Below, in pieces: positions 20,917-64,000 of a stretch of 64,000 bases of DNA. A model generated the notes under the pieces. That model was not told the origin of the DNA and did not search any database. It saw only the letters and a program-made list of their open reading frames with translations. The stretch is from a virus: positions 31,149 to 95,148 of IMG/VR virus record IMGVR_UViG_3300044692_000046; one strand, given 5' to 3'. The translations under genes were made by a program, and so were the position numbers. Within the stretch, counting starts at the first letter, position 1. Each line of letters starts with the position of its first letter.

Positions 20917-22526
20917 GACGCCTCCTTCGCCGGGTCAGGAAGCTCCCTCAGCGCCTGCCGGCGCCTCGCCCGGTACGTGTGCTGCCACGACTCGGACAGG
21001 CGGCGAGCGTCGCGCTGGTAGGCGTCCTCGCGGGGTGCTTTGCCCTGCGCGGCGTCGTCCGGACCGCCCGGCCGGTTATCGGGGGACTCGTCGTCCGAGG
21101 GCGGGTTGTCCTGCCCGGCGAATGGCTTCAGCACGTCCGGCACCGGGGCCGGCTCGGGCTTCTCCACGCTGATCGGCTCGCCCTGTTTCGGCTCGCTCGG
21201 CTCCAGCGCTGAGCCTTTCAGCTTGGCCGCCACGCCTGCCTTCGACATGGCCTCCATGTCCGACCACAGCACCAGGTTCTGCCGGTCCACCAGCACCGCC
21301 GCGTCACCGCCGTCGACTGGCGGTTCGCCGATCTCGTCGCGGTAGCGGTTCAGGACGTACGAGCCGTTGCGGAGCCGCATGTCGCGGATCTCCTCGACCA
21401 CCTTCGAGTCCCGGTAGTCGATCTCGTTGAACTCCAGGTGCCAGTCGGTGATCCCGAAGCCGACCTGCAGCAGGATGTAGTTCAGCTTCTCCAGCACGAG
21501 CGACTGCACCGGCAGGACCGTGTTCACCCGGAACGTCTTGTCCTGGCCTTCTGCCGTACCGCCGCCGAGGTTGCCGGACTCGATGATGCCCAGCTTCGCA
21601 GGCGGCACCCCGAAACAGGCGATGATCTCGTCCCGCAGCTGCTTCGACGCGGCCAGGTAGTCGGTGACCTTCCGCGGGTCCAGCACCGACACGGCGCCGT
21701 TCTTGGTGGTGATGACCGGCGTACCCACGGCCTTCGGGCCGAGGTTGAACACCCGGTACTTCTCCCGCCACTGCTGCACCTCGGGATCCTGGTAGGAGCC
21801 CAGGTCCACGTGCAGGCGCGGCGGGTCACCCTGCCGGAAGTTCTCCTTGATCGTCGCCTCGGTGAACAGCCACGCCGTCACCGGCAACAGCGCCTTCTGC
21901 GCTGGCGACACCCCGTACACGCCGCCCCGGGGGGCGTCGAGTGAGATGTGGATGACCTGCTCGGGCTTGAACTCGGCCTTACGCACCCCGTCCACGGCTT
22001 GCACGTAGCCGGACACCTCGCCGTGCTGGTCGGTGACCGCCGTCATCGTCGTCGCGTCCAGGGTGTACAGCGCGACCGGCTCACCCAGCAGCCACACCAC
22101 CTCGATGAACGCGTCCCCGAACAGCTTCAGGTCCGTGACCGTGTTGCGCAGCAGCTGGACCATGTCCTCACGCGGGTTGACGAACTTCATCAGCCGCGTC
22201 AGCCGCTGCACCACCGGAGGCTGCGGCGGCACCTTCCCTTCGGGAACGTCGTTGTCGTACACCACCTGCACGCCGCCGGCCGTCACCGTCCGGGCGATCA
22301 GATCGATCGGCGCCGACACCCACGGGCACGTCAGATACGCCTGGTGCAGCTGGGTGAGGATCTGCAGCCGCTCCTGCGACTCCGCGACCTGCGCTGTCGG
22401 GGAGGAAGCGCTGAGACTGACTCCGTACTCGAACCCGACCCGCTTCACCTGCGCCGCGCTCGGCTGCTCCGCCGGGGCGGCGAGCTTCTCCGACAGCCAG
22501 CGTCGCGCCCGCTCTACAGCGCCCAC
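20913..22526 (-). CDS. Portal protein
   Basis: 537 residues from GTG, overlapping the terminase stop by 13 bases. The central region has HK97-type portal motifs: PWVSAPIDLIARTVTAGG, LKLFGDAFIEVVW, EPVALYTLDATTM, VIHISLDAPRGGVYGVSPAQ, ACFGVPPAKLGI, SLVLEKLNYILL. The last 100 residues are a charged, proline-rich tail. Twelve copies form the DNA entry channel at one capsid vertex and bind the terminase. Length is at the upper end for the family because of the tail. Confidence 0.93.
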   Translation of the reverse strand: MGAVERARRWLSEKLAAPAEQPSAAQVKRVGFEYGVSLSASSPTAQVAESQERLQILTQLHQAYLTCPWVSAPIDLIARTVTAGGVQVVYDNDVPEGKVPPQPPVVQRLTRLMKFVNPREDMVQLLRNTVTDLKLFGDAFIEVVWLLGEPVALYTLDATTMTAVTDQHGEVSGYVQAVDGVRKAEFKPEQVIHISLDAPRGGVYGVSPAQKALLPVTAWLFTEATIKENFRQGDPPRLHVDLGSYQDPEVQQWREKYRVFNLGPKAVGTPVITTKNGAVSVLDPRKVTDYLAASKQLRDEIIACFGVPPAKLGIIESGNLGGGTAEGQDKTFRVNTVLPVQSLVLEKLNYILLQVGFGITDWHLEFNEIDYRDSKVVEEIRDMRLRNGSYVLNRYRDEIGEPPVDGGDAAVLVDRQNLVLWSDMEAMSKAGVAAKLKGSALEPSEPKQGEPISVEKPEPAPVPDVLKPFAGQDNPPSDDESPDNRPGGPDDAAQGKAPREDAYQRDARRLSESWQHTYRARRRQALRELPDPAKEAS

Positions 22527-24007
22527 GGGTCACCCCCGTTCAGCACTGGGAAGCCGCCGATGGAGGGCACAGGCGCATGAATCGCGTGCGGGTTGGTGGC
22601 CTGCGGATCGAGGGTGGTAGTCGACACCTCCCCGTCCTCCGGGAAGTGGAACCGCGACTCGGTGCCCAGGTTCGTCAGCAGGTAGCGCAGCGCGTCTGGG
22701 GCGTGGTCCTCGGAGTTCGTGTCCGCGTCCTCCGGGTTACCGGTTGTCGCGTGCGGTAGCGCCGCCAGCGTCCGGATCAGATTCGAGCAGGTGCGGAACA
22801 CGTGCAGCTTCGGGCACTTCTCCCAGCCCTGCGCCCGGTGATGCGGACACGCCGGCGCCTCAGCCAGGTAGGAGTGGATGCGCTGCCAGCCGATCACCCG
22901 CGACCCCGGGCCCTTACCGGCGGCAGTCAGCGGCACACCCTCGTCGGCGTAGACCTCCGCGATGGGTTTCGCGTCGCCTCTAGTTGCCCACATGGCGTCG
23001 TCGGCGAACCGGCCCGCGATGCTCTCCCCGTCAGCCTCGGCCGCGAGGATTCGCTTCGCCTGCTCCGACTCGCCCACCTGCACGTCGTACAGCTCGCGGT
23101 ACACCCAGACGCGGCCGTCCTCGTCGACAGCACCCCACAGCACCGCCCACGGCTTCGAGAAACCCCAGTCCAGGCCGTTGTAGCGGCGCCACGAGCCGGC
23201 CAGCGGGATCGGGTTGAGGGTGTGCCGGTCGTAGCGCCACTCCCCGAACACCTGACCCGCGAACTGGTCCCAGTCGCCGTCACGCATCGCCGCCCGGCGC
23301 TGCGGATCCGGGATCGAGTCCAGCCGCTTGAAGTACCCGTCGTCCAGGTGCGGATTGTCGGTGGCCTTCGCCTGGATGAACCGCACCGACAGGCCGTTGT
23401 CGTCGGTAACGACCTGCTTGCCGTGGTCGGTGGCGTCGATGTAGCGCAGCTTCACCTGCCCGTGCGACGGGCCGCCCGGGTTGCAGGTGGAGCGCACCCC
23501 GATCACCGGCACCGTGCCGTCGGAGCGGATCCGCTCGAACCGCAGAATGTCGATCACGCCCGGCGGCATCAGCGTCGCCTCATCCACCAGCAGCAGCTGA
23601 TACTGGCCGCCCTGCCGGCGAGACGCGTCCGTCACCGACTCCAGGTACCGGAACCGGATCAGCGACCCGTTCGGGAACCGCAGCTCCCGCTCCGTGCCGT
23701 TCCAGCGCGCACCCAACGCCTCCGCGTAGCCGAACTTCCCCAACGTCGGGAAGATCGACTCGTTGAGTTCGTCGTAGGTCCGGCGCACCAGCAGCACCCG
23801 CATCTGCGGGAAGCGGGCCGCCGCCCTGATGCCCTCGGCTACGATCGCGACGCTTTTACCGCCGCCGGCCGCGCCGCCGTACAGCACGTCGAACTCGGTC
23901 GCGGCATGAAACTCGGCCTGCCGCTCCGACGGGGCGTAGCCGATCTCGGCGAACACATCGACTGCGGCGAGGCGGTCCTGGTCCCGCCGCTGCTTCTCCA
24001 ACTGCAA
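22514..24007 (-). CDS. Terminase large subunit
   Basis: About 497 residues from the start used here. Walker A GGAAGGGKS lies at 44-52 and Walker B LLLVDE at 138-143, with the coupling motif STCNP about 30 residues later. The C-terminal nuclease part has GLDWGFSKPWAVLWG, RFADDAMW and SEDHAPDALRYLL, giving the acidic metal ligands of the RNase H-like domain. It cuts and translocates DNA into the prohead. The start is uncertain: the frame is open up to a TTG at 24091, which would overlap the small subunit by 83 bases; TTG at 24007 or 24001 and GTG at 23956 are alternatives. Confidence 0.92.
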   Translation of the reverse strand: MQLEKQRRDQDRLAAVDVFAEIGYAPSERQAEFHAATEFDVLYGGAAGGGKSVAIVAEGIRAAARFPQMRVLLVRRTYDELNESIFPTLGKFGYAEALGARWNGTERELRFPNGSLIRFRYLESVTDASRRQGGQYQLLLVDEATLMPPGVIDILRFERIRSDGTVPVIGVRSTCNPGGPSHGQVKLRYIDATDHGKQVVTDDNGLSVRFIQAKATDNPHLDDGYFKRLDSIPDPQRRAAMRDGDWDQFAGQVFGEWRYDRHTLNPIPLAGSWRRYNGLDWGFSKPWAVLWGAVDEDGRVWVYRELYDVQVGESEQAKRILAAEADGESIAGRFADDAMWATRGDAKPIAEVYADEGVPLTAAGKGPGSRVIGWQRIHSYLAEAPACPHHRAQGWEKCPKLHVFRTCSNLIRTLAALPHATTGNPEDADTNSEDHAPDALRYLLTNLGTESRFHFPEDGEVSTTTLDPQATNPHAIHAPVPSIGGFPVLNGGDPWAL

Positions 24008-24008
24008 C

Positions 24009-24542
24009 CTACGAAGCCGCTCCAGGCGTTCCAGCTTCAGAGCGGCCAAGCTCTGCGGAGAGTCGGCTGATCTCGGCGTCGATCGCGTCAAGGCTCAACA
24101 CCTCAACCTTCGACGGCGCGTCCAGCCCCAGCAGCTTCGCCCGCCGCTCCTGGATCTTCAGCAGCCGGTCGATGGCGTTGAGGACCGGCGCGTCGTCCTC
24201 CAGCGGCACCCCGTCGTCGCTCTTAACGACCCGGCCCTGCGACACGTGAATGTGGGTGCGTTCCAGCACCTTCAGCGCCTCGCGGGTCAGCCGGTCCAAC
24301 TGGGCGAGCTGGATCTGCCGGACCTCCTCGGCCGGCTCCCGGACCGTGTCCGCCAGGGCCCGCTGCACGGCCTTGCGAGCCGCCGACCGGTTGGCGAAGT
24401 TGAGTTGGTCTGCGATGTGCTGGTAGCTTGCCCCGCAGGCCCGAAGCTGTGCTGCCTCAGCATCCCGCCGCGCCGTATCGGCTGTTCGGGTGTACCGGCC
24501 GTTGTGTCCTCGGCCTGGGGTGTCCTTGGTTGTGGTGGCCAT
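24009..24542 (-). CDS. Terminase small subunit
   Basis: 177 residues. A helix-turn-helix near 30-62 (RACGASYQHIADQLNFANRS) is followed by long helices (EEVRQIQLAQLDRLTREALKVLE; PVLNAIDRLLKIQERRAKLLGLDAPSKVEV). The LLKIQERRAKLLGLDAP motif is typical of terminase small subunits of this class. It recognises the packaging site and regulates the large subunit. It is the first gene of the leftward virion module, starting 174 bases from the divergent lipoprotein gene. Confidence 0.85.
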   Translation of the reverse strand: MATTTKDTPGRGHNGRYTRTADTARRDAEAAQLRACGASYQHIADQLNFANRSAARKAVQRALADTVREPAEEVRQIQLAQLDRLTREALKVLERTHIHVSQGRVVKSDDGVPLEDDAPVLNAIDRLLKIQERRAKLLGLDAPSKVEVLSLDAIDAEISRLSAELGRSEAGTPGAAS

Positions 24543-24716
24543 CCGACACCACCGATTCTCACTCTGCGTCGATCTTTTCGGGATCGGGGTGGTCTCAGCC
24601 CGGGAATCCGGAGCACTCGGCGCTACGGTCGGTGATCTGCGGCGCCGTTCGGATGTCCGCTGCCTCAGCCGTTCGCCCCATGTCGTACCGAACCGGGCAG
24701 GTCGTACGGTGCGGCC
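24543..24716. promoter_or_regulatory. Divergent intergenic region between terminase and lipoprotein gene
   Basis: This 174-base gap separates the leftward virion operon from the rightward lipoprotein gene. On the plus strand TACGGT (24705-24710) lies exactly six bases before the lipoprotein ATG, the layout of a leaderless actinobacterial promoter. A perfect 7-base direct repeat GTCGTAC occurs at 24682-24688 and 24701-24707, 19 bases apart, covering the expected -35 and -10 positions, so it could be an operator. I could not identify a convincing leftward promoter by eye. Confidence 0.5.
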
Positions 24717-25109
24717 ATGCTTCCTCGCCGTGCCGCGCTAGCGGCTGCCTCAGCCCTGCTCATCCTGCCCGCAGCGTGTAGCTCCGTATCCCAGGGCTAC
24801 AAGCAGGGCTCGTCCACCAAGAAGTCCACTGGCGGGACGGTGCTCACGTTGCAGGCGTCCGCCGACAAGGGCGTCACCTTCGACGTGAACTGGTTCCCCG
24901 GGAGCGGGAAGGCGCAGGTCAAGAACTCGCTGACCGGCTCGTGGTCAACCAGCGTCACCACCGACAAGCCGGCGGCCGTCAACATGGGGGTGCAGGCCGA
25001 GTCCGGCAGCGGGAACGTCACCTGCAAGATCCTGAAAGGGTCGAAGGTGATGGTCGAGCAGACGAAGCCCGGTTCCGATGGGGCGAACTGCGCCTACCCG
25101 GCCAGCTAG
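24717..25109 (+). CDS. MmpS-like secreted lipoprotein (moron)
   Basis: 130 residues on the strand opposite to the virion genes. The N-terminus MLPRRAALAAASALLILPAAC is a lipoprotein signal peptide with Cys21 as the lipidation site. The mature part (VTFDVNWFPGSGKAQVKN, AVNMGVQAESGSGNVTCKIL, ANCAYPAS) has the pattern of MmpS-type beta-sandwich proteins of actinobacteria: a V-T-Y/F-x-V strand, a QxxSGxGxVTCxI strand and a final Cys. MmpS proteins accompany MmpL exporters; here there is no MmpL partner. Likely expressed in the lysogen to alter the cell envelope, for example in superinfection exclusion; that role is inference. Confidence 0.75.
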   Translation: MLPRRAALAAASALLILPAACSSVSQGYKQGSSTKKSTGGTVLTLQASADKGVTFDVNWFPGSGKAQVKNSLTGSWSTSVTTDKPAAVNMGVQAESGSGNVTCKILKGSKVMVEQTKPGSDGANCAYPAS

Positions 25110-25168
25110 CCGCAGGTCAGCCGCCCGGCTGATAGATGGGCGTTGATCTGTCGGAGCACACTGGGAGC

Positions 25169-25300
25169 GTGAATCCGTGGATGCAGCTCGCCCTCGTGGT
25201 GGTCGCGTTCGTCGTCATCGGGGGCATGTGCTTCGGGGCGGGGATGGCTACTGCCGAGGCGCTCGCTCAGCGTGCCGGCCGTCGGCAGTCTCGCCCGTAA
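25169..25300 (+). CDS. Small single-span membrane protein
   Basis: 43 residues from GTG: a hydrophobic segment (LALVVVAFVVIGGMCFGAGM) followed by a charged tail (ALAQRAGRRQSRP). It follows the lipoprotein gene by 59 bases on the same strand and its end overlaps the 3' end of the convergent gene at 25248-25484 by 53 bases. The ribosome site is poor, so this is a weak call. It could be a moron partner of the lipoprotein. Confidence 0.4.
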   Translation: MNPWMQLALVVVAFVVIGGMCFGAGMATAEALAQRAGRRQSRP

Positions 25301-25484
25301 CCTCCACGTGCAGTGCCTCGACCTTGCCGTGCAGGTCGTCGACGTGCCCGTACAGCCGCTCCAGCTTCTTGCCGATGCGCCAGTGGTGCACCAGGATGCC
25401 GGCGCCGAACGCCAGCGCCGAGGCTTCGAGGTTGGGGTAGACGGCCAGCCAGTTCGTCCACGCCCAGTGCAGGAGGCCGTTCAT
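25248..25484 (-). CDS. Small membrane protein with coiled tail, holin candidate
   Basis: 78 residues: one membrane segment near the N-terminus (LNWLAVYPNLEASALAFGAGILVHHW in outline, residues 10-34) followed by an amphipathic helix KKLERLYGHVDDLHGKVEALH. This arrangement is common in actinophage proteins encoded beside lysis enzymes and described as holin-like. ATGA overlap with the upstream gene. It is the last gene of the accessory run before the divergent lipoprotein, and two papain-fold enzymes are nearby upstream, which supports but does not prove a lysis role. Confidence 0.5.
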   Translation of the reverse strand: MNGLLHWAWTNWLAVYPNLEASALAFGAGILVHHWRIGKKLERLYGHVDDLHGKVEALHVEVTGETADGRHAERAPRQ

Positions 25485-26595: not shown

Positions 26596-27363
26596 TCAGT
26601 CCAGCGCGTCCAGGTCGGCCAGCAGTTGCCGGAGGTCGAGGCCCTGGGGGTCGTGGCCGGTCTTGTCGAGGAAGTCCGAGGTCACTACCGCGTAGCACTC
26701 TTCGAAGTAGGTGTCGAGGAACCGGCCAGTCATGGCTTGGAGAGCGCCCCACGTCACCGTGTAGTAGTTCGCCGGGTCGTAGCCGAGGATCGGCACCGCG
26801 TGCGCGCCGATGATCGGGGAACCGTCCACCACGTGCCAGTGGTCGCCGACCGCGAACTGATCCTCAGCGGACTGCGGTACGTTGAAGCCCGCGTACACGC
26901 CGCCGAACGTGGCGATGGCCTGCTTGAGTTGCCGGTGGTTGTGCGGGTCGATCCGCAGGAACGCCACGATCTTGTGTCCGGCGATGCCGTGCCGTCGCCA
27001 GTACTTGAGTACGTCGAGCTCGTTCGCGCCGCGGTCGGTCGGGTTGGTGCCGTCCGGGCGGGTCTGCGACGGGTCGTAGCCGGTGATCGCCTCGTAGGTA
27101 CGCTGCACGTCCTCGTCGGTGACCGAGACCTCGCGGCCGAGAGCGTACTGCGTCCACGCCTCGATCATGTGGGCCAGCGCCGCGATCGTGCAGTCCCCGA
27201 TCCGATCGTTCAGAAAAACGGGCCATTCGGTCACATCGCCGTACCAGTTCGCCCGCAGCGGCGGAGCGACCAGCCGCGCCTTCTGATAGGTGGCGTAGTT
27301 CAGGGTCCGCTCGTCATGCCGGACGGGGAGCCGGCCGTAGCAGTGCTGGACGTGACGGGACAC
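26596..27363 (-). CDS. Papain-fold (C39-like) cysteine peptidase
   Basis: 255 residues. The catalytic Cys is likely C58 in LNDRIGDCTIAALAHMIEAW, and the His H188 in IIGAHAVPILGYD, followed by YYTVTWG; this Cys ... GxHAVxxxGYD ... WG order is that of papain-like/C39 peptidases. In actinophages such proteins can be lysin subunits that cut peptide bridges, or virion-borne peptidases. No signal peptide. It lies among small accessory genes just upstream of the holin candidate, with an NlpC/P60-like enzyme close by, so a split lysis module is plausible. Confidence 0.7.
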   Translation of the reverse strand: MSRHVQHCYGRLPVRHDERTLNYATYQKARLVAPPLRANWYGDVTEWPVFLNDRIGDCTIAALAHMIEAWTQYALGREVSVTDEDVQRTYEAITGYDPSQTRPDGTNPTDRGANELDVLKYWRRHGIAGHKIVAFLRIDPHNHRQLKQAIATFGGVYAGFNVPQSAEDQFAVGDHWHVVDGSPIIGAHAVPILGYDPANYYTVTWGALQAMTGRFLDTYFEECYAVVTSDFLDKTGHDPQGLDLRQLLADLDALD

Positions 27364-34620: not shown

Positions 34621-35706
34621 ATGGGTTCCGACCTCGAGTATCTAGAGAGATCGCCGGGGCACCTCATCCGGCACCGCGGCAAGAAGATCACCGAAGAGGA
34701 GATCTGGGCGACGGTCCAACTCCTGCCGATCCCCGGCGACCACGACGACCGCTACGGGGCTCCCCGGCTCACCTCGAGCTGGCTCAGCAAGTTCAAGTCC
34801 CCCCACACGGTCGCCGCCTACGGACGTGATCTTGCGCAGTGGCTCATGTGGTGCGAGGAGGAAGGGCTCGATCCACTCGAGGTCCGCCGCGCCGACGTCG
34901 ACCGCTTCATCCGGAGCCTTGACGAAGCCGACCGGCCGCCCGTCGCGTCCACGATCGCCCGCAAGCTGTCCGCGATCTCGTCCTGGTACAAGTACCTCGC
35001 CAGCAATCGCATCCTCGGGCACAACCCGCTGTCCGCGGTCGACCGGCCCGAGTTCGACAAGGACCGGTCCAAGACGGTCGGGCTGTCAGTCAAGGAGGTC
35101 TGGGCGTTCATGGCGCGGCTGCGCCTCGAGCGAGGACCGCAGGCTGTCCGGGACCGCGCGATGCTCGGCGTCCTCCTCGAGCTGGGCCTGCGCGTCGGGG
35201 AGCTCGCTCGAGCAGACATCGCCGACGTCCACCACCGCGCCGGACACCGGGCGCTGCTCGTCCACGGCAAAGGCGGCCGGGACCGCGTCCTGCCGATCCC
35301 GGCACCTGTGGCGCTCGAGCTCGATGCCTACCTCGAGCAGCGCGCCGCCGACGCTGGCGTTCCGGTCGAGGAACTCGAGGGCCCGCTGTTTGTCACCTCA
35401 GGCGCCAAGGCGCAGGGCGAGCTCGAGCGGAGCCGGCTCACCCAGCCGCACGTGTTCGCGCTGATCCGTCGTATCGCCAAGGCCGCCGAGATCCCGTCTT
35501 GGCGCTCGCTGTCCCCGCACAGCTTCCGCCACACCGCTGCGACCGCCGCGCTCAACGACGGCGCCTCGCTGCGCGACGTCCAAGACTTCCTCGGCCATGC
35601 CGACCCACGGACCACTCGGCGGTACGACCGGGACCGCGGCGCCCTCGAGCGCTCCCCCGCCTACCGGCTTGCGTCCCTGTTCGCTCCCACCACCGACGAG
35701 GACTAG
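34621..35706 (+). CDS. int: Tyrosine integrase
   Basis: 361 residues. N-terminal core-binding domain about 50-140 (SPHTVAAYGRDLAQWLMWCE, SAISSWYKYLASN) and catalytic domain from 155. The active-site set is visible: R191 in ELGLRVGELA, K217 in HGKGGRDR, H300 and R303 in SPHSFRHTAA, H326 in FLGHADPRTT and Tyr335 in TTRRYDRD. It catalyses phage integration and excision by XerC/D-like chemistry. Rightward, opposite to nearly all other genes, with a leaderless promoter. CTCGAG hexamers are very frequent in this gene and the next, unlike the surrounding sequence. I cannot locate attP with confidence. Confidence 0.93.
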   Translation: MGSDLEYLERSPGHLIRHRGKKITEEEIWATVQLLPIPGDHDDRYGAPRLTSSWLSKFKSPHTVAAYGRDLAQWLMWCEEEGLDPLEVRRADVDRFIRSLDEADRPPVASTIARKLSAISSWYKYLASNRILGHNPLSAVDRPEFDKDRSKTVGLSVKEVWAFMARLRLERGPQAVRDRAMLGVLLELGLRVGELARADIADVHHRAGHRALLVHGKGGRDRVLPIPAPVALELDAYLEQRAADAGVPVEELEGPLFVTSGAKAQGELERSRLTQPHVFALIRRIAKAAEIPSWRSLSPHSFRHTAATAALNDGASLRDVQDFLGHADPRTTRRYDRDRGALERSPAYRLASLFAPTTDED

Positions 35707-50927: not shown

Positions 50928-51152
50928 TCATCCCTCCCCCTCCTCCACCTGTAGTCCCGGTATCTCTGGCTGCCTGTCGCACACCTCGGGTGGATGCGGC
51001 GGGCTGTCTTTCGTGTGTGCGGCCGGGCGTCTGCGTCCTCGGCCGCGGTCGCCCCGGCACTTCGGTCCGCGCCGCAACGCCCGTGACGCCGGGTCCCGGA
51101 GCGGGCGGTGGCAGTCACGGCACTCCACCCGGTCCTCGGCGGGGGCGGGCAT
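50928..51152 (-). CDS. DUF6011-type zinc protein
   Basis: 74 residues. VECRDCHRPLRDPASRALRR then GPKC: the CxxCxRPLxDPxSRxxxxGxxC pattern of DUF6011, with three Cys at 11, 14 and 32 plus His15. The rest is Arg/Pro-rich. ATG overlaps the WhiB stop as TGATG. It is likely a nucleic-acid-binding or regulatory partner of WhiB. Confidence 0.7.
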   Translation of the reverse strand: MPAPAEDRVECRDCHRPLRDPASRALRRGPKCRGDRGRGRRRPAAHTKDSPPHPPEVCDRQPEIPGLQVEEGEG

Positions 51153-51748
51153 CAGGCGCTCCTGGGTAGGCGCGCCTTGCAGGCGCGAGCCCGGTTGACG
51201 CAGCCGTGGGAGCAGTACTGCTGGGCTCGGCTGGTCGGGGTGTAGGCGCCCTCGCAGTGCCGGCAGATCCGCTCACCGGGCCGCAGAGGACGGTTGTGCG
51301 CTACGACCTTCATTGGCGCCGGACGGGCCTTGTGGTGGCTGCGGTTGCGGCAGCCGTCGCACATGTCCACCGACGCCGGCCACTCGGGGCGGATCTTCCG
51401 CTCCCCGCAGGAGCGGCACACCCGCCACTGCGGCAGCGGCACCGGTCGGGGACGGTTGCCGGCCAGCATCGCCCGCCGCTCGGTCTCGTCGTAGCCGCCG
51501 CGCACCCCGTCCAGCTCGCCGGAGTCCAGCGCGTCGGTCAGGCAGGTTTCGCGGACCGGGCAGCGCCAGCAGATCTCCTTGGCGATGGCCACGTTGCGCT
51601 GGTAGGCGGGGCTGTCGGGCTTCCCGGTCGGGTAGAACACGTCTGGGTCGTCCTCGTAGCGGCAGAGCCCCTTCGCCTGCCAGTTGAAGGCGGGATCGCT
51701 GTCAAGGTGGGAGCGGACTCGGGACGGCCGGCGCACGTAGGCGCTCAC
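51152..51748 (-). CDS. WhiB-family iron-sulfur regulator with C-terminal zinc extension
   Basis: 198 residues from GTG (GTGA overlap). Cys29, Cys60, Cys63 and Cys69 (GLCRYEDDPDVFYP; KEICWRCPVRETCL) are the 4Fe-4S ligands and GVRGG at 81-85 is the family turn. Unlike host WhiB proteins, which end near 80-130 residues, this one continues with two further Cys sets (CRSCGERKIRP...CDGC; CRHCEGAYTPT...CSHGC) that resemble zinc ribbons. WhiB proteins act with the primary sigma factor. Here it may redirect host transcription or control lysogeny. Confidence 0.88.
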   Translation of the reverse strand: MSAYVRRPSRVRSHLDSDPAFNWQAKGLCRYEDDPDVFYPTGKPDSPAYQRNVAIAKEICWRCPVRETCLTDALDSGELDGVRGGYDETERRAMLAGNRPRPVPLPQWRVCRSCGERKIRPEWPASVDMCDGCRNRSHHKARPAPMKVVAHNRPLRPGERICRHCEGAYTPTSRAQQYCSHGCVNRARACKARLPRSA

Positions 51749-52440
51749 GACGCCCTCCCGAGGTAGCTGGCGGGGTCGTAGCGGGACGGCAGGCCCATGC
51801 GGATGCGGCGCTTCCCGATCGTCTTGTGGTCGGCGCGCAGGATTGCCGCGATCTCCCCGTCGGTCTTGTCGGCCGCGTTCAACCGGCGCACCGCCTCCGC
51901 CCGCTCGGCGGGCCACATCTCGTCGTAGGCGACCTCACCGCGGCATGCCCGGATGACCCGGGGCTCGTCGTAGCGGGCGCTGCGGTCCCGGCCGGGCTGC
52001 TGCGGTTGCGCATCAGGGTCGTCGATCTCGTCGTCGTCCCAGGCCAGCGGCGGGGCGTAGCCGGCCGACTCGGCACGGCGCTGCGTCCGTTTCGACGGTC
52101 CAGGCAAAGCCCAGAGAGTGTCGTAGGCCGCTCGGATCGCGGTGATGGTCGCTTGCTTCACCGTCGTTCGCTGCATGACCTGCCCGCATGTTCCGGCGGG
52201 CAGGCTGGCTTGCTGCTCGATGAGCACGCCGGGCCAGCCCATCCGCATGAGCGCCTGGATACGCCGCTGGGTGCCGGTGGCATCGAGGTAGGTGGGGGCC
52301 AAGCGGCCTTCACGGCGGCGCTTGCTGTAGAGGCGGTGTTCCTCACGCGCGTCGGGACAGCGGCAGCCGCGCCGGTAGTCCCACTCTCGCCCGTGCCGTC
52401 GGCCTCGGTATTGGCAGCCGGAGCGGTCGACGTCGGTCAT
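51745..52440 (-). CDS. HTH DNA-binding protein with Cys-rich start
   Basis: 231 residues, ATG overlapping the upstream stop as TGATG. N-terminal CQYRGRRHGREWDYRRGCRC has a Cys/His cluster. The middle contains LMRMGWPGVLIEQQA and a repressor-like helix, and the C-terminus AADKTDGEIAAILRADHKTI then GKRRIRMG is a helix-turn-helix. Two HTH regions and a zinc motif suggest a regulator of the WhiB operon. Similar proteins accompany phage WhiB genes. Repressor or activator cannot be decided. Confidence 0.65.
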   Translation of the reverse strand: MTDVDRSGCQYRGRRHGREWDYRRGCRCPDAREEHRLYSKRRREGRLAPTYLDATGTQRRIQALMRMGWPGVLIEQQASLPAGTCGQVMQRTTVKQATITAIRAAYDTLWALPGPSKRTQRRAESAGYAPPLAWDDDEIDDPDAQPQQPGRDRSARYDEPRVIRACRGEVAYDEMWPAERAEAVRRLNAADKTDGEIAAILRADHKTIGKRRIRMGLPSRYDPASYLGRAS

Positions 52441-63685: not shown

Positions 63686-64000
63686 TGGATCATCTCCTTC
63701 AGTTGACGGTTCAGCCGGTTGAGAGCCCGGATGGATTCACTGAGGGAGACGGTCCAGTTCTTGATCTCCTCGGCGTCAAGCTCGCCAAAGTTCACGAGAG
63801 ACAGCCCGGGAACCAGACCTTCGATGTTGGTGACCGTCTCCCGCACGATGCGGTTCGAGTCGATCGACTTGCGGGTACCGCGGCCCAGCGCCTCATCGGC
63901 GGGGATGCGGATGCGTTCCTTGCGGGCGATGTCGCGGACGGTCTGCGTGAGGATGCCGACCTTCTCGCTGATCTGCGCCGAGGAGTAGCCGCGCTCGGCC
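63682..64000 (-). CDS. HTH protein, C-terminal part (runs off the window)
   Basis: 105 codons visible; the start is beyond the right edge. GYSSAQISEKVGILTQTVRD followed by IARKERIRIPADEALGRGTR is a helix-turn-helix with an adjacent basic region, then a helical part (EEIKNWTVSLSESIRALNRL). The stop overlaps the start of the ParB-like gene (GTGA), so the two are coupled and probably act together in DNA binding. Confidence 0.65.
   Translation of the reverse strand, partial: AERGYSSAQISEKVGILTQTVRDIARKERIRIPADEALGRGTRKSIDSNRIVRETVTNIEGLVPGLSLVNFGELDAEEIKNWTVSLSESIRALNRLNRQLKEMIQ

What the first reader, a model, noticed from the sequence alone, without database searches (positions are those of the whole stretch)
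24682..25300. MmpS-like lipoprotein carried as a phage moron
A lipoprotein with signal peptide and MmpS-type beta-sandwich motifs is encoded rightward in the gap between terminase and the lysis-associated genes, with its own promoter and a GTCGTAC direct repeat across it. Its partner MmpL is absent. A small membrane protein gene may follow. This is the configuration of a lysogenic-conversion gene, expressed when the rest of the prophage is silent and acting at the envelope.
Basis: partly seen in the sequence, partly recalled or inferred. Interest (0 to 1): 0.6.

Follow-up and report, generated by a model that had tools for sequence, protein, structure and literature searches.

The report
MmpS-fold moron gene in an actinophage
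A bacterial virus of Streptomyces-like soil bacteria carries a lone, backwards-facing gene for a small exported protein with the same fold as the mycobacterial export helper MmpS, and similar genes recur at lysogeny-type positions in about twenty other such viruses, which suggests they alter the surface of the infected cell, probably to keep rival viruses out.

Summary
The ORF at 24717-25109 (+, 130 aa) is real and MmpS-like. Single-sequence search against solved structures gives MmpS5/MmpS4 first (E 9.7e-5). An AlphaFold2 model matches MmpS5 best (Foldseek E 1.1e-4, target TM 0.75). Both cysteines of the MmpS disulfide are present. Pfam PF05423 falls just under its cut-off (19.6 vs 21 bits). 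MmpL is absent from an apparently complete ~95.0 kb genome (127-bp terminal repeat). The gene is the only rightward one among 38 leftward genes.

New here: MmpS-domain genes recur in 19 other IMG/VR phage records and in the isolated Gordonia phage Walrus, mostly beside the integrase facing the lysis genes, inverted inside late operons, or near a repressor. This comparative pattern is the best support for 'moron / lysogenic conversion'.

Not upheld: no consensus promoter at the window gene; the GTCGTAC repeat is within chance; the lipobox is atypical (Pro at -3); the 54-aa ORF is indistinguishable from spurious ORFs; 'lysis-associated' is only partly right. Orphan MmpS-like lipoproteins are common in Streptomyces chromosomes, so a missing MmpL is unremarkable. 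Best mechanism: membrane-tethered superinfection exclusion, Ltp-like in logic but not an Ltp family member. Expression and function are untested.

The parts
24717..25109 (+). MmpS-like exported (probable lipo-) protein gene, 130 aa
   Evidence: coding; MmpS family and fold
24717..24782 (+). Signal peptide with atypical lipobox LPAA-Cys22
   Evidence: translation; fails PS00013 and G+LPP at -3
24837..25094 (+). Eight-stranded beta-sandwich (residues 41-126), block-mean pLDDT 91-98
25023..25091 (+). Codons of Cys103 (25023-25025) and Cys125 (25089-25091), the pair invariant in MmpS proteins
   Evidence: MmpS disulfide described in PMC12803245 and PMC12501195
24543..24716 (.). Divergent intergenic gap between TerS and the MmpS-like gene; TACGGT at 24705-24710 is a possible leaderless -10; GTCGTAC at 24682-24688 and 24701-24707
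25117..25132 (.). Inverted repeat TCAGCCG-CC-CGGCTGA just after the stop codon; hairpin without T run
   Evidence: fold z -2.2 for 25100-25150
25136..25300 (+). Possible 54-aa membrane protein ORF, coding status unresolved
24009..24542 (-). Putative small terminase / HTH protein (phrog_645)
22514..24091 (-). Terminase large subunit
25248..25484 (-). 78-aa putative membrane protein, convergent neighbour
26596..27363 (-). phrog_19005 protein, papain-like by eye; homologues sit beside endolysin in L143 and L145
27610..28368 (-). Weak YaeF/YiiX-like permuted papain match
34621..35706 (+). Tyrosine integrase (temperate lifestyle)

Best explanation
A temperate actinobacterial phage carries a moron: a single gene, oriented against the late operon, encoding an exported MmpS-fold beta-sandwich probably tethered to the outer face of the cytoplasmic membrane by an N-terminal lipid. 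Shown: the ORF, its fold, the disulfide cysteines, the orientation, the absence of MmpL, and recurrence of MmpS-domain genes at lysogeny-type positions in other actinophages. Inferred: it is expressed in the lysogen from its own promoter, and its surface-exposed domain blocks DNA entry of superinfecting phages, as Ltp of phage TP-J34 does.
For: MmpS homology and fold. Only rightward gene among 38 leftward ones. Hexamer usage atypical for the phage. MmpS-domain genes in 19 other IMG/VR records plus Gordonia phage Walrus. Placement next to the integrase and facing holin/endolysin in L143, L145, L146, L159, L161, L162; next to the integrase in L144; downstream of the integrase in the repressor-integrase cassette of Walrus. 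Inverted beside the tape-measure gene in L149/L150 and beside the portal gene in L152. L150 promoter TTGACA-16-TAGGAT (shuffles mean 0.1). At the L149/L150 locus a related record (L167) keeps the anchor and spacer but carries a different outer domain. Precedent: Ltp is a 142-aa phage lipoprotein transcribed in the prophage that prevents DNA injection (PMC3952083).
Against: No expression or exclusion data. No consensus promoter at this locus. Lipobox atypical. The window protein is on a long branch outside the main phage subfamily, so function may not transfer. Relatives outside phages are chromosomal and of unknown or transport-accessory function.
Confidence: 0.45

Rival explanations
1. Transport accessory in trans: the phage MmpS-like protein joins a host MmpL/RND pump and alters export of a lipid, siderophore or antibiotic in the lysogen.
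For: MmpS fold and conserved disulfide cysteines. Orphan MmpS-like lipoproteins occur on Streptomycetales chromosomes.
Against: The window protein has no MmpS-type transmembrane helix, which contacts MmpL TM8 in the predicted MmpS4-MmpL4 complex (PMC12803245). Other MmpS paralogues cannot replace MmpS5 (PMC12501195). No MmpL in the phage.
Confidence: 0.2
2. Other lysogenic conversion: a surface beta-sandwich that changes host envelope, adhesion, sporulation or stress behaviour rather than phage entry.
For: Lysogeny-type positions of relatives. A second lipoprotein-like gene follows the MmpS-like gene in L159 and L162, as in a conversion cassette.
Against: No host phenotype known; shares all gaps of the main explanation.
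Confidence: 0.2
3. Captured host gene without function for the phage, a passenger picked up by illegitimate recombination.
For: No close relative in any viral collection; long branch; atypical hexamer usage.
Against: Intact ORF with conserved fold-defining residues; recurrent presence of the same domain in other actinophages at similar positions.
Confidence: 0.1
4. Lytic-cycle gene acting with the neighbouring envelope or lysis proteins.
For: It lies beside leftward genes, one of which has homologues in the lysis cassettes of other prophages.
Against: Opposite strand to all late genes; the endolysin is at the other end of the operon; relatives lie in integrase/repressor regions too.
Confidence: 0.05

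Closest known systems
MmpS4/MmpS5 (PF05423), mycobacterial transport accessory proteins
   Same: Beta-sandwich fold, position of both disulfide cysteines, C-x-I motif
   Different: No N-terminal transmembrane helix retained (signal peptide ending in Cys instead), no MmpL partner gene, below the Pfam gathering score, carried by a phage
Streptomyces chromosomal MmpS-like lipoproteins (e.g. L113, L116, L120)
   Same: Signal peptide with Cys, short linker, MmpS domain
   Different: Canonical lipoboxes and LPW-KT motif; chromosomal
Gordonia phage Walrus gp39 and the YNICSAQ/YNIASCE actinophage proteins (L142-L153, L159, L171, L173)
   Same: Phage-borne MmpS domain in lysogeny or moron position
   Different: Mostly N-in transmembrane anchors with Pro-rich tails; most form a separate subfamily in the tree
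Ltp of Streptococcus phage TP-J34, superinfection-exclusion lipoprotein
   Same: Small phage-encoded exported protein with a proposed moron character (PMC3952083)
   Different: No Ltp-family match in the Pfam scan; different position (Ltp lies beside the integrase in the lysogeny module); expression and exclusion not shown here

Membership tests
MmpS / PF05423 Mycobact_memb | Profile score above the curated cut-off | tested here: not met
   19.6 bits vs 21, E 8.9e-4
MmpS / PF05423 Mycobact_memb | MmpS beta-sandwich fold | tested here: met
   AF2 model pLDDT 82.5, top PDB matches MmpS5, MmpL5-S5 complex, MmpS4; the MSA contained MmpS relatives, but the single-sequence model shows the same strand order at low confidence
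MmpS / PF05423 Mycobact_memb | Conserved disulfide cysteine pair | tested here: met
   C103 and C125 invariant in A1 and A2; bond formation itself not tested
MmpS / PF05423 Mycobact_memb | N-terminal transmembrane helix contacting MmpL | tested here: not met
   Signal peptide ending in Cys22, followed by a Ser/Lys-rich linker; read from the sequence
MmpS / PF05423 Mycobact_memb | MmpL partner encoded alongside | tested here: not met
   No PF03176 in the record; dependence on a host MmpL not testable here
Moron / lysogenic conversion gene | Single gene, opposite orientation inside the late region, absent from relatives | tested here: met
   no phmmer match in the fetched stretches around 63 terminase-related loci and no inverted counterpart seen beside the terminase
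Moron / lysogenic conversion gene | Own promoter and terminator | tested here: inconclusive
   No consensus promoter or T-run terminator; possible leaderless -10 and a hairpin; clear promoter in the relative L150
Moron / lysogenic conversion gene | Expressed in the prophage state | not testable with these tools
   No transcriptome
Bacterial lipoprotein | Lipobox matching PS00013 / G+LPP | tested here: not met
   Pro at -3; Cys22 at the end of the hydrophobic stretch is otherwise as expected
Ltp superinfection-exclusion family | Ltp domain match | tested here: not met
   Pfam scan lists only PF05423 and PF22195 for this protein

The most novel reading that the evidence does not exclude
MmpS-fold proteins are a recurrent, repeatedly acquired class of actinophage superinfection-exclusion proteins: the actinobacterial counterpart of Ltp, with a membrane anchor plus an exchangeable outer domain.
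Probability: 0.3. Interest if true: 0.75.

Novelty: new variant of a known kind. Interest (0 to 1): 0.5.

Why it matters
Lysogenic conversion in Streptomyces-type hosts is little known at gene level. A fold known as a mycobacterial drug and siderophore export accessory recurring as a phage moron links two fields and gives a testable candidate: Gordonia phage Walrus gp39 is from an isolated phage with a laboratory host and can be tested now. My full-text searches of an open-licence library found no description of phage-borne MmpS-like proteins; absence there is not proof of novelty.

Tried and rejected
GTCGTAC as operator: not supported, within chance and otherwise mostly coding. Sigma-70 promoter at the window locus: none. 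Close relatives by tblastn in phages, plasmids, IMG/VR and species genomes: none. PF05423 by name in seven prophage-host genomes: nothing, a sensitivity failure of the Mycobacterium-centred model, since the home-made profile finds 78 of 199 Streptomycetales genomes. NCBIfam and PHROGs for the ORF: no family. Mycobacterium phages MA5 and Myrna (weak structural hits) could not be followed: the Myrna accession tried was not held and no paper on MA5 was found. The 54-aa ORF as a second gene: unresolved. Integrated-prophage boundaries: replaced by the finding of a terminal repeat.

Full report
What is there. The finding describes an ORF at 24717-25109 (+) of 130 aa. It sits alone on the plus strand between a leftward small-terminase-like gene (24009-24542) and a leftward 78-aa gene (25248-25484). 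A hexamer gene model trained on the contig gives 38 leftward genes in a row with this as the only rightward one (counting the small terminase). Leave-one-out, the ORF scores above all 104 spurious ORFs of similar length but below the 5th percentile of the phage's own genes, which fits an acquired gene. The window lies in a 95,148-bp IMG/VR virus record. Its first and last 127 bases are identical, so the record is probably a complete genome of about 95,021 bp. It encodes two tyrosine integrases, RecE/RecT, RuvC, a DnaC-like loader, ParB and WhiB proteins. Terminase relatives lie in Streptomyces, Kitasatospora, Catenulispora and a Streptosporangiaceae genome, so the host is probably an actinomycete of that kind.

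Is it MmpS? Pfam PF05423 matches at 19.6 bits against a cut-off of 21. Single-sequence phmmer against PDB sequences ranks MmpS5 first (E 9.7e-5) and fills the top five places with MmpS4/MmpS5. Profile comparison with six mycobacterial-type MmpS proteins gives a pairwise E of 3.5e-7. An AlphaFold2 model has residues 41-126 at high confidence as eight strands; Foldseek's only hit below E 1e-3 in the PDB is MmpS5 8em5, followed by the MmpL5-S5 complex and MmpS4. The alignment used contained MmpS relatives; a single-sequence model was of low confidence but gave the same strand order. C103 and C125 are invariant in the alignments and correspond to the conserved MmpS disulfide described in PMC12803245 and PMC12501195. 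The N-terminus is a signal peptide ending LPAAC; strict lipobox patterns fail because of Pro at -3. I therefore call it MmpS-fold and probably lipidated, not an MmpS.

The missing MmpL. No PF03176 is in the record. This is less telling than it looks: a profile built here finds MmpS-like proteins in 78 of 199 Streptomycetales genomes, and most of the 30 fetched are lipoproteins by a simple lipobox test.

Is it a moron? There is no consensus promoter; the GTCGTAC repeat is at chance level (a 7-mer direct repeat is expected in 27% of comparable stretches) and the word's excess in the window is mostly coding. A possible leaderless -10 (TACGGT, 6 nt before ATG) and a hairpin after the stop remain candidates.

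The comparative evidence is stronger. Other MmpS-domain genes were found in 19 further IMG/VR records and in the isolated Gordonia phage Walrus; Gordonia phage UmaThurman has an 86-aa version next to its integrase. In L143, L145, L146, L159, L161 and L162 the gene lies between an integrase and oppositely oriented holin/endolysin genes; in L144 it lies next to an integrase; in Walrus it lies directly downstream of repressor and integrase. In L149 and L150 it is inverted inside the tail operon beside the tape-measure gene, in L152 inverted beside the portal gene. L150 has TTGACA-16-TAGGAT upstream where shuffles give 0.1 sites, with GGTATTACC palindromes by eye. Exceptions exist: L142 and L173 are co-directional with both neighbours. 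L167 keeps the anchor and spacer of L149/L150 beside the tape-measure gene but has a different outer domain. In L143 and L145 the lysis block facing the MmpS gene contains homologues of the window gene 26596-27363, so the window arrangement partly resembles theirs.

A tree of the 90-column domain puts most phage proteins in one subfamily (support 0.93), with the window protein on a long branch near mycobacterial MmpS (0.74) and Walrus/L139 near a Streptomyces lipoprotein (0.36-0.85). This suggests several acquisitions, but the domain is short and support is modest.

Mechanism. The most economical reading is a lysogenic-conversion gene whose product displays a beta-sandwich outside the membrane. 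The best-studied precedent with the same logic is Ltp of TP-J34, a 142-aa lipoprotein transcribed in the prophage that stops DNA injection; [quoted passage not shown] That the window protein does this is inference. A transport role with a host MmpL is the main rival; it is weakened by the lack of the transmembrane helix that contacts MmpL and by the reported partner specificity of MmpS5.

Novelty. Phage morons and exclusion lipoproteins are known; MmpS-fold morons were not found in my literature searches. I rate it a new variant of a known kind.

Noticed in passing
G000 contig ends (L002:1-127 and window 63874-64000): Exact 127-bp direct terminal repeat, indicating a complete ~95.0 kb genome.
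   Followed up: partly
L002:3189-4340 (-) and window 34621-35706 (+): Two tyrosine integrases in one phage genome.
   Followed up: no
L159:6330-6989 and L162:6678-7460: A second lipoprotein-like gene directly downstream of the MmpS-like gene, as in a conversion cassette.
   Followed up: no
L167:213-1751 and L168 versus L149/L150: Same anchor and spacer beside the tape-measure gene but a different outer domain, an apparent swap of the exposed module.
   Followed up: partly
L175:3926-4186 (Gordonia phage UmaThurman gp34): 86-aa gene whose last 61 residues are 93% identical to Walrus gp39, probably a truncated version.
   Followed up: partly
L150:5656-5715: Near-consensus promoter with GGTATTACC palindromes between -35/-10 and downstream, a possible operator.
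   Followed up: no
G000 contig c15944-16032: ARAGORN reports a tRNA-Pro(ggg).
   Followed up: no
window 51152-51916 (-): WhiB-family regulator encoded by the phage (Pfam E 5.8e-18).
   Followed up: no
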